A program made the position numbers and the translations under genes. From positions 1 to 46,483 of the forward strand of contig JAQVGD010000005.1 in NCBI GenBank assembly GCA_028696945.1: a DNA stretch of 46,483 nucleotides, in the 5' to 3' direction. The notes under the pieces were generated by a model, which was not told the origin of the DNA, ran no database searches, and worked only from the letters and a program-made list of their open reading frames with translations. Source of the DNA: Lutibacter sp. Lineage in GTDB: Bacteria > Bacteroidota > Bacteroidia > Flavobacteriales > Flavobacteriaceae. Each line of letters starts with the position of its first letter. The stretch's first letter is position 1. Below, in pieces: positions 22,722-29,079 of this stretch.

Positions 22722-23582
22722 ATGATTCTAATAGCAGATGGAGGTTCAACGAAGGTTGATTGGATTTTACTGGATAAAGATGGAAGTCAGGTATTTAAAA
22801 CAAGGACTGAAGGATTAAATCCAGAAATCTTGTCTGCCGATATATTGAAAATCAGAATTCGGGCCAATGAGGAAATCTCGAGTTACAAAGACAAAGTGAC
22901 TGAGGTTTATTTTTATGGTGCTGGATGCGGAACAAAGAAATTGACATCGCTTTTGAAATCTATATTTGAATCATTTTTTAAAAATGCGAAAATTGTTGTA
23001 AAGGAAGATACTTTTGCCGCAGTTTATGCTGTAACCACAAAACCAGGAATAGTTTGTATTCTGGGAACAGGATCAAATAGCTGTTATTTTGACGGCAAAA
23101 ATGTCGATGTCAGAGTTCCTTCATTGGGCTATATTTTAATGGATGAAGCCAGTGGTAATTATTTCGGCAAAAAATTAATACGGGATTATTATTACAATAA
23201 GATGCCAAAATCCATTGCAGCACTTTTTGAAACGCAATTTGATTTGGATGCTGATGTCATCAAAAGAAATATTTATAAAGAGGAAAATCCGAATGTCTAT
23301 TTAGCGCATTTTGCTGAATTTATTTTCAAAAATGATCGCACACCGTACTTTAATAAAGTGTTGCGTAAAGGGTTAAAAGATTTCTTTAAAAATAGGGTGT
23401 TGCCTTATGTTGAATCAAGCCATGTTCCAGTACATTTTGTTGGTTCAATAGCTTTCTTTTCACAGGATATTATCAACGAAGTTGCGAATTATCATTTGAT
23501 TGAAATTGGCAAAGTTATTAGGCGACCTATTGATGGTTTGATAGAATACCATAGAGAAAAAATAAAATCAGAGAAGGTCTAA
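22722..23582 (+). CDS. BadF/BadG/BcrA/BcrD-type ATPase, probable amino-sugar or hexose kinase
   Basis: 286 residues of the ASKHA fold. The phosphate-1 motif 'IADGGSTKVDW' is at 3-13, and the phosphate-2 motif 'GIVCILGTGSNSCYFDG' lies near 110. 'LMDEASGNYFGK' near 140 and an adenosine motif 'HFVGSIAFFS' near 240 resemble N-acetylglucosamine kinases of this family. Placement after pfkA and gapA supports a role in feeding a phosphorylated hexose into glycolysis. One attractive role is phosphorylating the free glucose left by maltose phosphorylase, but amino-sugar kinase is the commoner annotation. Its 3' end overlaps the 3' end of convergent murF by 15 bp. Confidence 0.75.
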   Translation: MILIADGGSTKVDWILLDKDGSQVFKTRTEGLNPEILSADILKIRIRANEEISSYKDKVTEVYFYGAGCGTKKLTSLLKSIFESFFKNAKIVVKEDTFAAVYAVTTKPGIVCILGTGSNSCYFDGKNVDVRVPSLGYILMDEASGNYFGKKLIRDYYYNKMPKSIAALFETQFDLDADVIKRNIYKEENPNVYLAHFAEFIFKNDRTPYFNKVLRKGLKDFFKNRVLPYVESSHVPVHFVGSIAFFSQDIINEVANYHLIEIGKVIRRPIDGLIEYHREKIKSEKV

Positions 23583-24827
23583 CAACCTTTCTAAAGCCAT
23601 ACCGCGAGATCCTTTTATAAGAATCGTGGCATTGTTAATGTTTGAATAATTAGTTGAATTTTTGAAAGACTCATAACTTTCAGAAACAAAAGCATTTTTT
23701 ACACCAGTTGTAGAAAATGCTTTTCCTATTAAGAAAACCTTCGAAAAATTATACGAAATTACCAAATTTGCTATTTTTTCATGTTCCGCTTTGCTGTCTT
23801 TTCCCAGCTCAAACATATCGCCTAAAAACACCACTTTATTTCCATCCTTCAATTGGGCAAAATTTTCAAGCGCAGCCTGCATACTGCTCGGATTTGCGTT
23901 ATAGGCATCCAAAATTATTTTATTGCTGCCTTTTTCAATGATTTGCGAGCGGTTATTTGCTGGGGTATAACTTTCAATGGCATTTTTAATATCATTTTCA
24001 GAAACATTAAAATAATTTCCAACCGCAACAGCTACCGCAATATTGCTGTAATTGTATTTTCCGATAAGGTTGCTTTCAATCAAAATATTTTTAAATTGAA
24101 CATTCACAAACGGATTGGCTTCTATAAATTTAATGGTATTGTTGTTAAATTGGATGGAATTTATGTCTGATGATTGTTTTACCTGAAGTTCATCATCTGT
24201 ATTAATAAAAACAGTTCCGTTATTCAATCTTAAAAAATCATACAATTCGGATTTTGCTTTAACAACGCCTTCAAAATCTCCAAATCCTTCTAAATGTGCT
24301 TTTCCGAAATTGGTAATTAAGCCATAATTCGGTTCAGCGATGCCACATGAAAATTCAATTTCCTTTAAATGATTTGCGCCCATTTCAACAATGCCAATTT
24401 CTGTTTTTGGCGTTATGGATAACAGTGTAAGCGGTACGCCAATATGGTTGTTTAAATTGCCAGAAGTAGCCACAGTTGCATATTTTTTTGACAATACGGC
24501 ATTAATAAGTTCTTTGGTGGTGGTTTTTCCGTTGCTTCCTGTTAATGAAATAATAGGAATGGCAAGTTGCTTTCTGTGATGATTCGCTAACTTTTGAAGC
24601 GTTTCCAAAACATTTTCAACCAAGATGGTTTTGGAATCAGTTTTGTATTTTTCCTCATCAATAACCGCATAGTTTGCTCCGCTTTTTAGTGCTTCTTCAG
24701 CAAATTCGTTTCCATTGAAATTATCGCCTTTTAGGGCGAAAAACATGCTTCCATTTCTTATTTTTCGGGTGTCGGTATCCACCAAATAAGTTTGGTTATA
24801 TAACAGGTATAATTGTGCAATATTCAT
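23568..24827 (-). CDS. murF: UDP-N-acetylmuramoyl-tripeptide--D-alanyl-D-alanine ligase
   Basis: 419 residues, slightly shorter than E. coli MurF (452). The ATP-binding loop 'LTGSNGKTTTKE' is at about 95-106. Further Mur-ligase features are 'EMGANHLKEIEFSC' near 148, 'DAYNANPSSM' near 307 and 'LGDMFELG' near 337, the last two being MurF-specific. It adds D-Ala-D-Ala to the peptidoglycan precursor in the cytoplasm. It lies downstream of gldJ on the same strand, a common flavobacterial arrangement, but a hairpin terminator separates the two, so it probably has its own promoter. Confidence 0.95.
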   Translation of the reverse strand: MNIAQLYLLYNQTYLVDTDTRKIRNGSMFFALKGDNFNGNEFAEEALKSGANYAVIDEEKYKTDSKTILVENVLETLQKLANHHRKQLAIPIISLTGSNGKTTTKELINAVLSKKYATVATSGNLNNHIGVPLTLLSITPKTEIGIVEMGANHLKEIEFSCGIAEPNYGLITNFGKAHLEGFGDFEGVVKAKSELYDFLRLNNGTVFINTDDELQVKQSSDINSIQFNNNTIKFIEANPFVNVQFKNILIESNLIGKYNYSNIAVAVAVGNYFNVSENDIKNAIESYTPANNRSQIIEKGSNKIILDAYNANPSSMQAALENFAQLKDGNKVVFLGDMFELGKDSKAEHEKIANLVISYNFSKVFLIGKAFSTTGVKNAFVSESYESFKNSTNYSNINNATILIKGSRGMALERLLDLL

Positions 24828-24891: not shown

Positions 24892-26598
24892 TTAATATCT
24901 GACTTTTGTTGTTGTTGGTTTTCTTTTTTTATAAGTCATTGGACCAATTCTGTCTGAAGCACACCTAAAACCAATATAATTGGTGGCCATATATTCGGGC
25001 AAATACCTGCGTTGGGAAGGATCTAGCCAATATTCCATATCTTTCCATGAGCCACCTTTGTAAACACGCGAGATGTCGCTAATTAAAGTAGTTCTTTTAG
25101 CAACGTCATATTCTTGCATCAATAAGCCGCTTTCTCCAATAACTTTTGGTTTAACAGGCGAATTGTACATTCGTGGTTTGGTTTCTAAATCTTCCTCATT
25201 TTTATTGTACATTTTTGTTGAAGCCAAATCACCATCTTTTACATCCACATTATAAGCTTCCTCATAATTATTTCTCATATAAGCATCGCTCTTGGTAACA
25301 GGAGTATATTTAACGCTTCCAGGCAAAAATTTAGGCACTATTTTGCCATTAGCTAAAGTATCATATTCAACTGTCTGATCATCGGCAATTACAACACTTC
25401 CTTCAGCATCAATCATTTTTTTTGTAAAAATATTTCCTCTGAAATAGTTGAAGTCATTGGCTTCACTATCAATAATTGGTCGGTAAACATCTGCCACCCA
25501 TTCAGCGACATTACCAGACATGTCATACAAACCAAAAGCGTTTGGTTCATAAGATTTTACAGCGATAGTGATATCGGCACCATCATTGCTCCATCCTGGA
25601 ACACCGCTATAATCTCCTTTTCCTTGTTTAAAGTTAGCCAATTGGTCACCTTTATATTTTTTTGATTTGTTTCGGGTATATTTTCCTTCCCAAGCATATT
25701 TTTTTCTACCTCGCGTATTGTTATACTCACGGTTTTCAACAATAGCTTTTGCTGCGTATTCCCATTCAGCTTCGGTAGGAAGTCTAAATTTAGAGCTCAA
25801 TATTCCGTCAGAAATTTTGACTTGTCTGCCAGTAAATGAACCTCTTGAAGGTCTGGATTCCCCTTTTTTAAGTTGTTTATTAGTTGGTAATCCTTTTTTG
25901 TAGATAGAAGAATCTCCATCAAAAAGACTAAATGGACTGCTTAAATAGGTATCTGTATTAAAATTGTTCTGTCCCTTAACTTCTAGAGAATCTAACTTGA
26001 AAAGAGGTTTTAGCACTCCTTTATCCATCAATATTTTTTCATTAACCCTATCGGTTCTCCATTTACAATATTGTGTAGCCTGAATCCAACTAACGCCTAT
26101 TACCGGATAATCAGCATAACCTGGATGTCTCAAATAATTTTCAGTCAATAATTCATTCAATCCCAAAACATCTCTCCAAACTAAAGTATCTGGAACGGCA
26201 GATTCATATATATGCTCATAATTTGGGTCGCTCGGAGGAAAAACTTTTTCCATCCAATCTAAATAAAATCCATATTCAGAGTTGGTCACTTCAGTTTCAT
26301 CCATATAAAATGAACGAACTTGTTGTTGAACTGGTGTGGTATTCCAGTCAAACAGTACATCATCCTGTACATGACCCATAGTAAATGTACCGCCTTCAAT
26401 TAAAACCATTCCTGGAGGTGCTTGCTGTCCTTTATATTTTGTGTCTCCCGCAAAACCACCTGCTTTCTTATCCTTAGAACTCCAACCGGTAAGAGATACA
26501 TTATTTCTTGGGTTTCTATTATGGCAACTCACAAAGAAAACAACAGTAATAGTTAACAAGATTAACTTAGAAATGTTATTTAGATTTTTTAAGTTCAT
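24892..26598 (-). CDS. gldJ: gliding motility lipoprotein GldJ
   Basis: 568 residues with lipobox Cys25. The mature part begins with the GldJ-typical 'SLTGWSS' and carries a formylglycine-generating-enzyme (sulfatase-modifying factor) fold: 'PGMVLIEGGTFTMGH' near 62, 'PVIGVSWIQATQYCKWR' near 165, 'LPTEAEWEYAAKA' near 272, and 'VYKGGSWKDMEYW' with 'YIGFRCA' near the end. GldJ is a structural lipoprotein of the gliding apparatus in Flavobacterium johnsoniae, and its loss also destabilises GldK and secretion. The known neighbour murF is conserved downstream. Upstream, where porU is expected, there is only non-coding sequence before porV. Confidence 0.93.
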   Translation of the reverse strand: MNLKNLNNISKLILLTITVVFFVSCHNRNPRNNVSLTGWSSKDKKAGGFAGDTKYKGQQAPPGMVLIEGGTFTMGHVQDDVLFDWNTTPVQQQVRSFYMDETEVTNSEYGFYLDWMEKVFPPSDPNYEHIYESAVPDTLVWRDVLGLNELLTENYLRHPGYADYPVIGVSWIQATQYCKWRTDRVNEKILMDKGVLKPLFKLDSLEVKGQNNFNTDTYLSSPFSLFDGDSSIYKKGLPTNKQLKKGESRPSRGSFTGRQVKISDGILSSKFRLPTEAEWEYAAKAIVENREYNNTRGRKKYAWEGKYTRNKSKKYKGDQLANFKQGKGDYSGVPGWSNDGADITIAVKSYEPNAFGLYDMSGNVAEWVADVYRPIIDSEANDFNYFRGNIFTKKMIDAEGSVVIADDQTVEYDTLANGKIVPKFLPGSVKYTPVTKSDAYMRNNYEEAYNVDVKDGDLASTKMYNKNEEDLETKPRMYNSPVKPKVIGESGLLMQEYDVAKRTTLISDISRVYKGGSWKDMEYWLDPSQRRYLPEYMATNYIGFRCASDRIGPMTYKKRKPTTTKVRY

Positions 26599-27394
26599 TT
26601 CAAATTAGTTAGGGTTATATTTTTCCGCAATTTACACTAAATTAATTTTTTTGCAAGAAATAATTCTAATATTTAATAAATATTTGCTACGCTTTTACTA
26701 ACGATGGTTTTCAATCTTTAGTATGCAAAATGTTGTAATATATTTCAATGATACAGCTATTTTTTTAATGAAACGCCTTACAAAGCGCAATTATTTTTCA
26801 TATTTCTTTTCGCCAAAAATACCATTTTTAGATTGTAATTGGACATATTTTTTTAAATAGTAATAAAAATAGTAGGGCGAATGGAGGCATTATCTTTACA
26901 GTATAAACTAACTTACTGTAAATATTAATTGTAAAAAAATGTTTAAACATCTCATATACACATACTTACAATTATATAAAAACCCACAGAAACAGAACTT
27001 GTAGCTTAATGACACAATTTATAAAATTCAATCTCTCTTATTTGGGCTGTTTTAAAAGTATGGAATCCTACAATAATATGAAGGAAATAGCGTTTTTTTC
27101 TCTGAAGTTGATAATGATTTTGCGTATATAAAAGTTTGAATTTTGCCTGTTGGTGGACAAATTATTATCTTGTTGTTTTTATCAATTATTTTGTGCGAGC
27201 TAAAAATAAACTAAAATTGGTAATTAGCCTGTTCAATTTTAGGGCATTTATTTGGAATTGTGCGTTGGGTTAATTTGATGATTTTGTTTTTATGCAAAAA
27301 AAAATAGGTAAATTGGCTTAAATTAAATCTGTTGAAACTTAATTTTTAAAACAGACATAAAAAAGCAGAAAAATTAGGATACTTCAATAATAAA
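26599..27394. other. non-coding gap between gldJ and porV
   Basis: About 800 bp with no ORF of useful size on either strand. Short open stretches exist but all are interrupted within 25 codons or so. One inverted repeat is visible, TTTACAGTA at 26895-26903 with its complement at 26914-26922, which could be an operator or weak hairpin. The gap must hold the promoters of two divergent genes. In other Bacteroidota porU lies next to porV; no piece of a porU-sized gene (over 1,000 residues) can be recognised. Confidence 0.7.
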
Positions 27395-27427
27395 ATGAGA
27401 TATTTGATAATTAAATATACAAAATTA

Positions 27428-28561
27428 ATGAGAAAGATAATAGGATTGACATTTTTAGTTTTTATGGTAGTTGTAGAAACTTATGCGCAAGAAAATTATA
27501 ATCCAATTACCACAGCTGCTCCATTTTTATTGATTGCGCCAGATGCACGTGCTGGTGGAATGGGAGATGTTGGCGTGGCAACTTCACCTGATGCAAATTC
27601 ACAGTACTGGAATGCCTCGAAATATGCGTTTATGGATTCTCAATTTATGGTTGGAATCACTTACACTCCTTGGATGAGGGAACTTACGAACGATGTTTTT
27701 TTGGGTGGATTTAACTTTGCAAACAAAATAGATGACAGAAGTGCTTGGGCGGCAAGTTTTAAATATTTTAATTTAGGAGAAATTCAATTAACGGATGATT
27801 TTGGAGGAGACCAAGGAACTGAAAATTTAAATGAATTCTCTTTAGATGGTTCTTATGCTTTAAAATTGAGTGAAACCTATTCCATGGGAGTAACCTTGCG
27901 TTATATTCGTTCCGATTTAGGTATTAAATCCGCAAATTCAACGCTAGATCCAGTAAATACTTTCGCAGTGGATATTTCAGGGTATTATGAATCTGAAGAA
28001 CAAAGTTACCGCACTTTTAATGGTGTATGGAGAGGTGGTTTCAATATTTCAAACATTGGACCGAAAGTTTCATATACCAATGATGGACAAGAGAATTTTA
28101 TCCCAACCAATTTAAAAGTTGGTGGTGGATTTGATTTTATATTAGATACCAACAATAAATTGGGTTTAAGTTTAGAGTTTAATAAGCTGTTGGTTCCTAC
28201 GCCAAGCGTTTCCATAAATGATGATGGCGAAGCACCTTATAAACAAGAAGACGTGAGTTTTTTTGAGGGTATTTTTAAATCATTTGGCGATGCACCTGGA
28301 GGATTTAGTGAAGAGCTTAAAGAAATTACATGGGGATTGGGCGCAGAATATATGTACGACAATTCTTTTGCTTTAAGAGCTGGGTATTTTAATGAAAGTG
28401 ATTTAAAAGGAGCCCGTAAATATTTAACCGTAGGTACGGGATTTAAGTTTAAAAGTTCCAAAATTGATATTTCTTATCTATTCAATACTTCAGAAGTTAA
28501 AAATCCTCTTGAAAATACACTCCGATTTTCCTTGTCTTTCGATTTTGGAAATTCCTACTAA
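27428..28561 (+). CDS. porV: type IX secretion outer-membrane protein PorV (LptO)
   Basis: 377 residues from the chosen ATG. An ATG 33 bp upstream (27395) is in frame but would place charged residues before the signal peptide, which otherwise reads well as 'MRKIIGLTFLVFMVVVETYA'. The mature N-terminus 'TTAAPFLLIAPDARAGGMGD' and 'SQYWNASKYAFM' are characteristic of the PorV/FadL-like barrel. PorV is a 14-strand beta-barrel that carries T9SS cargo to PorU on the cell surface and is needed for CTD-protein attachment. Final residues 'LRFSLSFDFGNSY' are a typical barrel end. The cytidine deaminase gene follows 35 bp downstream. Confidence 0.92.
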   Translation: MRKIIGLTFLVFMVVVETYAQENYNPITTAAPFLLIAPDARAGGMGDVGVATSPDANSQYWNASKYAFMDSQFMVGITYTPWMRELTNDVFLGGFNFANKIDDRSAWAASFKYFNLGEIQLTDDFGGDQGTENLNEFSLDGSYALKLSETYSMGVTLRYIRSDLGIKSANSTLDPVNTFAVDISGYYESEEQSYRTFNGVWRGGFNISNIGPKVSYTNDGQENFIPTNLKVGGGFDFILDTNNKLGLSLEFNKLLVPTPSVSINDDGEAPYKQEDVSFFEGIFKSFGDAPGGFSEELKEITWGLGAEYMYDNSFALRAGYFNESDLKGARKYLTVGTGFKFKSSKIDISYLFNTSEVKNPLENTLRFSLSFDFGNSY

Positions 28562-28596: not shown

Positions 28597-29079
28597 ATGA
28601 AGAAAGTTGAGCTAAAAACACAGATTACTATTTTTGATTCTATTGAAGAACTCCCTACAATAGTAAAAGATTTGATGGATAAAGCCGTTGAAGCCAAACA
28701 AAATGCTTATGCGCCTTATTCTAAGTTTAAAGTTGGTGCTGCCATGCTTTTGGAAGACGGAACCATCATAACAGGAAACAATCAGGAAAACGCAGCATAT
28801 CCTTCTGGAATGTGCGCCGAGCGTGTTGCTATATGGAAAGTCTCCTCCGAATTTCCAACTAAAAAAATCTTAAAGCTGGCCATTTCTGCAAGTGCTTCAA
28901 CCAAAATTCTTAAAGAACCTGTGGCACCTTGTGGGGCTTGCAGGCAAACCTTATCGGAATATGAAATTAAACAGAAGGATAAAATTGAAGTTTATTTTAT
29001 GGGTGAAGTTGGTGAAATTATCAAAACTGAATCGGTTTTAGATTTGCTTCCTATAGCTTTTGATAAAACCTTTTTATAA
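28597..29079 (+). CDS. cdd: cytidine deaminase
   Basis: 160 residues, homotetrameric type. Zinc ligands are visible as 'GMCAERVA' (Cys73, with catalytic Glu75) and 'PCGACRQ' (Cys112, Cys115). 'NAYAPYSKFKVGAA' near 37 forms the substrate pocket. It deaminates cytidine and deoxycytidine for pyrimidine salvage. It sits between porV and a haemoglobin gene, as seen in other flavobacteria; the grouping with T9SS genes appears to be positional. Confidence 0.96.
   Translation: MKKVELKTQITIFDSIEELPTIVKDLMDKAVEAKQNAYAPYSKFKVGAAMLLEDGTIITGNNQENAAYPSGMCAERVAIWKVSSEFPTKKILKLAISASASTKILKEPVAPCGACRQTLSEYEIKQKDKIEVYFMGEVGEIIKTESVLDLLPIAFDKTFL

What the first reader, a model, noticed from the sequence alone, without database searches (positions are those of the whole stretch)
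26599..27394. porU is absent from its usual place between gldJ and porV
In Flavobacterium johnsoniae porU lies between gldJ and porV, and in Porphyromonas gingivalis it is adjacent to porV. Here gldJ and porV face away from each other across about 800 bp of non-coding DNA. PorU is the sortase of type IX secretion and acts together with PorV, so it should exist elsewhere if the system works.
Basis: partly seen in the sequence, partly recalled or inferred. Interest (0 to 1): 0.55.

Follow-up and report, generated by a model that had tools for sequence, protein, structure and literature searches.

The report
Secretion sortase gene genuinely lost here
This marine bacterial lineage (Lutibacter) has really lost the sortase of its type IX protein-secretion machine, together with the sortase's two partner proteins, while keeping the export channel, the shuttle protein and some cargo; it is a natural test of how cargo is displayed without the sortase, but such losses are already known elsewhere.

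Summary
gldJ (24892-26598, -) and porV (27395-28561, +) flank a 796-bp AT-rich gap without porU. It is not a misassembly: the same clean gap occurs in many independent Lutibacter assemblies, and it keeps a fossil of porU's last codons (27365-27393) directly before porV.

PorU was not found elsewhere. PorU and C25-peptidase profiles find nothing in the genome, although they ring strongly in sister species; 17 of 38 genomes of the genus lack PorU. PorQ and PorZ, its partners in the attachment complex, are missing in the same genomes and present in every PorU+ genome tested. All 11 Arenibacter genomes tested and one Maribacter lost all three separately.

PorU-minus genomes keep SprA, PorV, type A cargo (fewer: median 10 against 19) and similar type B cargo. 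Best explanation: the PorU-PorQ-PorZ module was lost; PorV, with its own promoter, carries the remaining cargo, which presumably keeps its C-terminal domain at the surface.

PorQUZ-less systems are already reported (Sphingobacteriia; two sponge isolates lacking PorU/PorQ), and about a third of Flavobacteriaceae genera lack PorU. This is a well-resolved new case of a known kind. The inference that porU 'should exist elsewhere' is not supported.

The parts
23568..24827 (-). murF, conserved neighbour
   Evidence: TIGR01143 352 bits; syntenic in relatives
24892..26598 (-). gldJ, gliding/T9SS lipoprotein
   Evidence: TIGR03524 835 bits
26599..27394 (.). gap where porU stands in relatives; non-coding, about 25% G+C
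   Evidence: no ORF of 60 aa; no PorU remains by six-frame profile search except the 3' fossil
26599..26770 (.). conserved gldJ-side flank, matching the gldJ-porU spacer of PorU+ species over about 130 nt
   Evidence: 74-82% identity; about 90% conserved within the clade
27040..27112 (.). conserved island of about 70 nt in the PorU-minus clade, function unknown
   Evidence: 76-86% in several clade members; no Rfam hit
27365..27393 (+). fossil of the last codons of porU (...EKLVILQ stop in relatives), here with a 1-nt deletion
   Evidence: alignment of the junction in 13 PorU-minus and 13 PorU+ loci
27399..27406 (+). GATATTTG, likely -7 promoter box of porV (consensus TAnnTTTG)
   Evidence: 13 of 13 PorU-minus Lutibacter; exact TAnnTTTG in 17 of 22 PorU+ loci outside Lutibacter against 0.06 expected per sequence
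27428..28561 (+). porV, shuttle for type A cargo (ORF open from 27395, likely start 27428)
   Evidence: NF033710 534 bits; start inferred from the alignment
28597..29079 (+). cdd, cytidine deaminase, conserved neighbour
   Evidence: TIGR01354 123 bits; syntenic

Best explanation
porU was deleted in an ancestor of this Lutibacter clade, leaving the gldJ-side promoter region, porU's last codons and the porV promoter. PorQ and PorZ are gone as well, so this is a type IX secretion system without the PorU-PorQ-PorZ attachment module (shown by profile searches). SprA still exports type A CTD cargo and PorV still takes it from the channel (inferred from retention of SprA, PorV and CTD cargo). With no sortase, the CTD is most likely neither cut by PorU nor replaced by LPS: the cargo stays on PorV at the surface, or leaves with its CTD (inferred, by analogy with P. 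gingivalis porU mutants). Type B CTD adhesins, which use other shuttles, are hardly affected in number.
For: PorU profile silent in the genome and in 17 of 38 genomes of the genus, over 1340 bits in nearly all the others. C25 profile silent in all 27 distinct PorU-minus genomes, 342-382 bits in 10 PorU+ controls. PorQ: 15 of 15 PorU+, 0 of 20 PorU-minus. PorZ: 13 of 13 PorU+, none convincing in PorU-minus. SprA present everywhere. Type A cargo kept but fewer, 4-13 against 16-59; type B medians 6 and 7. porU 3' fossil and conserved porV promoter box. Independent joint loss in Arenibacter/Maribacter. Uncut cargo stays on PorV in P. gingivalis porU mutants (PMC5562754).
Against: Fate of the CTD is not shown by any sequence evidence. 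GldK/L/M/N, SprE and SprT were not searched, so activity of the whole system is inferred. The genome is a 310-contig draft with 6.9% contamination. A highly diverged PorU-like enzyme of another fold would be missed.
Confidence: 0.72

Rival explanations
1. The module was lost and an unrelated surface peptidase now removes the CTD, for example the conserved S8-type protease that itself carries a type A CTD, so cargo is released rather than held on PorV.
For: An S8-like protease with a type A CTD (about 551 aa) is among the best-scoring and most widely kept cargo proteins of PorU-minus Lutibacter. T. forsythia proteases can remove CTDs by autoprocessing (PMC5445135).
Against: The same protease is also kept in PorU+ species, so it was not gained with the loss; no gene specific to PorU-minus lineages was identified.
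Confidence: 0.17
2. The type A branch is decaying: PorV and the remaining CTD cargo are leftovers and only type B (gliding) secretion still matters.
For: Type A cargo is reduced. PorV changes faster relative to MurF in PorU-minus than in PorU+ Lutibacter (1.12 against 0.57).
Against: PorV is intact with the full profile match and a fixed promoter box. Intact cargo frames persist. The deeper Arenibacter/Maribacter clade still has 8-15 type A cargo proteins and no PorV speed-up against a PorU+ genus.
Confidence: 0.09
3. Assembly or binning error removed porU from this contig.
For: Fragmented draft genome of 310 contigs.
Against: Same gap in L013, L014, L016-L022, L031, L032 and L080 from different projects and in Arenibacter isolates; porU fossil at the junction; PorQ and PorZ missing too; 12 of 29 high-quality genomes of the genus lack PorU.
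Confidence: 0.02

Closest known systems
T9SS of Sphingobacteriia (no PorQ, PorU, PorZ; PMC7323717)
   Same: The same three proteins are missing together while the channel and PorV are kept; the authors also suggest that cargo stays on PorV.
   Different: There a class-wide absence; here a recent loss inside a genus, with PorU+ sister species and a fossil of the gene.
Flavobacteriaceae sponge isolates Aa_F7 and DN50 (PMC7440613)
   Same: No porU between gldJ and porV and none elsewhere; PorQ also not found; other T9SS and gliding genes kept, colonies spread.
   Different: Hypothetical genes stand next to gldJ there; PorZ and cargo were not reported in the passages read; Aa_F7 is nearest Flagellimonas, not Lutibacter.
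T9SS of Flavobacterium johnsoniae / PorU+ Lutibacter
   Same: Same gene order murF-gldJ / porV-cdd and the same tested parts (SprA, PorV, GldJ, type A and B cargo).
   Different: porU between gldJ and porV, and PorQ and PorZ, are present there. In F. johnsoniae PorU is reported not to be needed for secretion of ChiA, RemA or SprB (Kharade and McBride 2015, from memory, paper not held; the gliding part is cited in PMC7440613).
P. gingivalis porU mutant (PMC5562754)
   Same: PorV and exported cargo present without the sortase; uncut cargo is found on PorV.
   Different: A laboratory mutant that still has PorQ and PorZ; here a natural, fixed loss of all three.

Membership tests
Type IX secretion system (core) | SprA/Sov export channel | tested here: met
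   TIGR04189 2545 bits, G000:C201:14118-20948
Type IX secretion system (core) | PorV shuttle | tested here: met
   NF033710 534 bits, window 27395-28561
Type IX secretion system (core) | GldJ (gliding/T9SS lipoprotein of Flavobacteriia) | tested here: met
   TIGR03524 835 bits
Type IX secretion system (core) | GldK/PorK, GldL/PorL, GldM/PorM, GldN/PorN motor and ring | not tested
Type IX secretion system (cargo) | type A CTD cargo (TIGR04183) | tested here: met
   5 in the own genome
Type IX secretion system (cargo) | type B CTD cargo (TIGR04131) | tested here: met
   4 in the own genome
T9SS attachment complex (PorU-PorV-PorQ-PorZ) | PorU sortase | tested here: not met
   NF033707 and PF01364 silent in G000; positive controls ring in relatives
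T9SS attachment complex (PorU-PorV-PorQ-PorZ) | PorQ | tested here: not met
   0 of 20 genomes without porU at the locus, including close Lutibacter relatives; 15 of 15 PorU+. The own genome itself was not in that search
T9SS attachment complex (PorU-PorV-PorQ-PorZ) | PorZ | tested here: not met
   PF21544 has no match in G000; 13 of 13 PorU+ genomes match
T9SS attachment complex (PorU-PorV-PorQ-PorZ) | CTD cleavage and attachment to A-LPS | not testable with these tools
   needs proteomics

The most novel reading that the evidence does not exclude
A PorU-independent way of finishing type A cargo, either lasting display on PorV with the CTD as a non-covalent anchor or cutting by an unknown CTD peptidase, was reached independently in Lutibacter and in Arenibacter/Maribacter after loss of the whole PorU-PorQ-PorZ module.
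Probability: 0.3. Interest if true: 0.6.

Novelty: new member of a known kind. Interest (0 to 1): 0.36.

Why it matters
T9SS models place PorU at the last step for type A cargo. Sister species of one genus with and without PorU, PorQ and PorZ, sharing the export channel and some cargo, let one ask directly what PorU is needed for and how cargo is held without it. The three genes vanish together in at least two lineages, which marks them as one discrete, dispensable module. Annotation pipelines should not score a T9SS as broken because porU is missing.

Tried and rejected
(1) porU elsewhere in the genome: none. (2) Misassembly: refuted. (3) Coding remains of porU in the gap: no profile hit in six frames (best E 0.22); only the 3' fossil. 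(4) RNA family in the gap: none in Rfam. (5) Mobile element or large repeats in the gap: only short repeats that look like chance. (6) Number of losses inside Lutibacter: the locus tree separates L032 (0.94 support), but SprA does not reject a single loss (AU p 0.236), so this is left open. (7) Faster PorV change in PorU-minus Lutibacter is not repeated in Arenibacter and may reflect different divergence levels. (8) PorV sites invariant in PorU+ but changed in PorU-minus (24) do not cluster clearly. (10) The Kharade and McBride 2015 paper is not held.

Full report
OBSERVATION. The window has murF-gldJ on the minus strand and porV-cdd on the plus strand, with 796 bp between gldJ (24892-26598) and the longest porV ORF (27395-28561), and no ORF of 60 aa in the gap. 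Profiles confirm GldJ (835 bits) and PorV (534 bits). In PorU+ relatives the same neighbours enclose a 3.7-kb porU on the porV strand.

NOT AN ASSEMBLY ERROR. The organism is most likely a Lutibacter: the PorV relatives at 76-87% identity are mostly records named Lutibacter. The same porU-less gldJ/porV junction appears in L013, L014, L016-L022, L031, L032 and L080, from different projects, and in Arenibacter isolates (13 loci) and one Maribacter (L072). The gap itself shows what happened. Its left ~130 nt match the gldJ-porU spacer of PorU+ Lutibacter (74-82%). Its right end holds the final codons of porU (27365-27393; window GCAGAAAAATTAG-GATACTTCAATAATAA, PorU+ L023 AAAAATTAGTAATACTTCAATAATAA at its 3' end). 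The middle is poorly conserved apart from a ~70-nt island (27040-27112). No other PorU coding remains are detectable.

PORU WAS NOT FOUND ELSEWHERE. The PorU profile finds nothing in the genome (3.36 Mb, 96.65% complete, 6.9% contamination), nor does the C25 peptidase profile. The first C25 search rang in no control genome, so it was repeated with positive controls: all 10 PorU+ genomes ring at 342-382 bits and all 28 PorU-minus rows (27 distinct genomes; G064 and G008 are the same genome by identical coordinates) are silent. In the genus 17 of 38 genomes lack PorU, 12 of the 29 of high quality.

THE WHOLE ATTACHMENT MODULE IS GONE. PorQ scores 390-454 bits in all 15 PorU+ genomes tested and is absent from all 20 genomes without porU at the locus, where only PorV itself or other weak family members ring at 41-73 bits. 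The own genome was not in that search; its close relatives were. PorZ is present in all 13 PorU+ genomes (75-140 bits) and has no match in the own genome. Across the PorU-minus set four distinct Lutibacter show only weak partial matches (20.8-28.5 bits) in frames of over 1000 aa, most likely other beta-propeller proteins; one of them (G017, also listed as G063) just passes the cut-off when neighbouring matches are added. PorU, PorQ and PorZ are encoded apart from each other in PorU+ genomes (for example G074: C3, C2 and C4), so one deletion cannot explain their joint loss.

THE REST IS KEPT. SprA is present in every genome tested and full length in the own genome (G000:C201, 2545 bits); in G003 it is split over two contigs, in G074 it is reported in two pieces, and in G002 it has one in-frame TGA. 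Type A CTD cargo is present in every PorU-minus genome. The own genome has five matches: an S8-like protease, a 131-aa CTD-only protein, a 443-aa protein and two short frames. Counts are lower than in PorU+ Lutibacter, 4-13 against 16-59 in high-quality genomes (medians 10 and 19, no overlap, p 7e-6, not corrected for phylogeny). Type B cargo is similar, medians 6 and 7, p 0.07. PorU and PorZ are CTD proteins themselves and may account for one or two of the type A difference. GldK/L/M/N were not searched.

INDEPENDENT LOSSES. In a tree of MurF, GldJ, PorV and Cdd the Arenibacter/Maribacter PorU-minus clade (support 1.0) and the Lutibacter PorU-minus loci are separated by many PorU+ lineages, so there are at least two losses. 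Inside Lutibacter one or more losses cannot be told apart. Over the family, 101 of 151 genomes, nearly one per genus, have PorU, so about a third of genera lack it; how many of those keep PorV was not tested.

HOW PORV SURVIVED. A TAnnTTTG box, the Bacteroidota -7 element (established knowledge), lies just before porV in 17 of 22 PorU+ loci outside Lutibacter, against 0.06 expected per sequence. In PorU-minus Lutibacter the variant GATATTTG is present in 13 of 13, in the window at 27399-27406. porV therefore probably has its own promoter, which the deletion spared. The box overlaps the frame opened by the 27395 ATG, so translation most likely starts at 27428.

MECHANISM. Shown here: loss of PorU, PorQ and PorZ with retention of SprA, PorV and cargo. 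Inferred: SprA exports type A cargo, PorV extracts it, and without a sortase the CTD stays on. In P. gingivalis porU mutants uncut cargo accumulates on PorV (PMC5562754). PorV is the type A shuttle in F. johnsoniae (PMC12618676). Type B cargo depends on PorP/SprF proteins instead (PMC10202324), which fits its similar number here. Whether another peptidase trims the CTD is open.

COMPARISON AND NOVELTY. The joint absence of PorQ, PorU and PorZ in Sphingobacteriia, and the idea that cargo then stays on PorV, were published in 2020 (PMC7323717). Two sponge isolates of Flavobacteriaceae without PorU and PorQ, with gldJ in the familiar neighbourhood and spreading colonies, were published the same year (PMC7440613). 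The present case adds a within-genus contrast, PorZ and cargo data, a molecular fossil of the deletion and an independent Arenibacter/Maribacter loss. It is a new member of a known kind.

Noticed in passing
L094 (G000:C12:1148-1381), L097, L101, L103, L108, L111; L104-L107: Very short proteins made of a signal peptide and little more than a type A CTD (about 105-131 aa) are conserved in Lutibacter with and without PorU; in Arenibacter and Maribacter they stand in tandem pairs. Function unknown.
   Followed up: partly
window 27040-27112: An island of about 70 nt in the otherwise unconserved gap is 76-86% alike in several PorU-minus Lutibacter; no Rfam match.
   Followed up: partly
e.g. G059:C14:94263-95264, G060:C5:181625-182656: A third PorV/PorQ-family protein (about 75-101 bits to PorQ) appears in PorU+ genomes and seems missing in nearly all PorU-minus ones; it may be a further member of the lost set.
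   Followed up: no
G002:C13:23473-30303: sprA of one PorU-minus Lutibacter has an in-frame TGA: sequencing error or pseudogene.
   Followed up: no
PorV loci of PorU-minus Lutibacter: PorV changes about twice as fast relative to MurF as in PorU+ Lutibacter (1.12 against 0.57), a possible sign of relaxed constraint; not seen in Arenibacter against Leeuwenhoekiella.
   Followed up: partly
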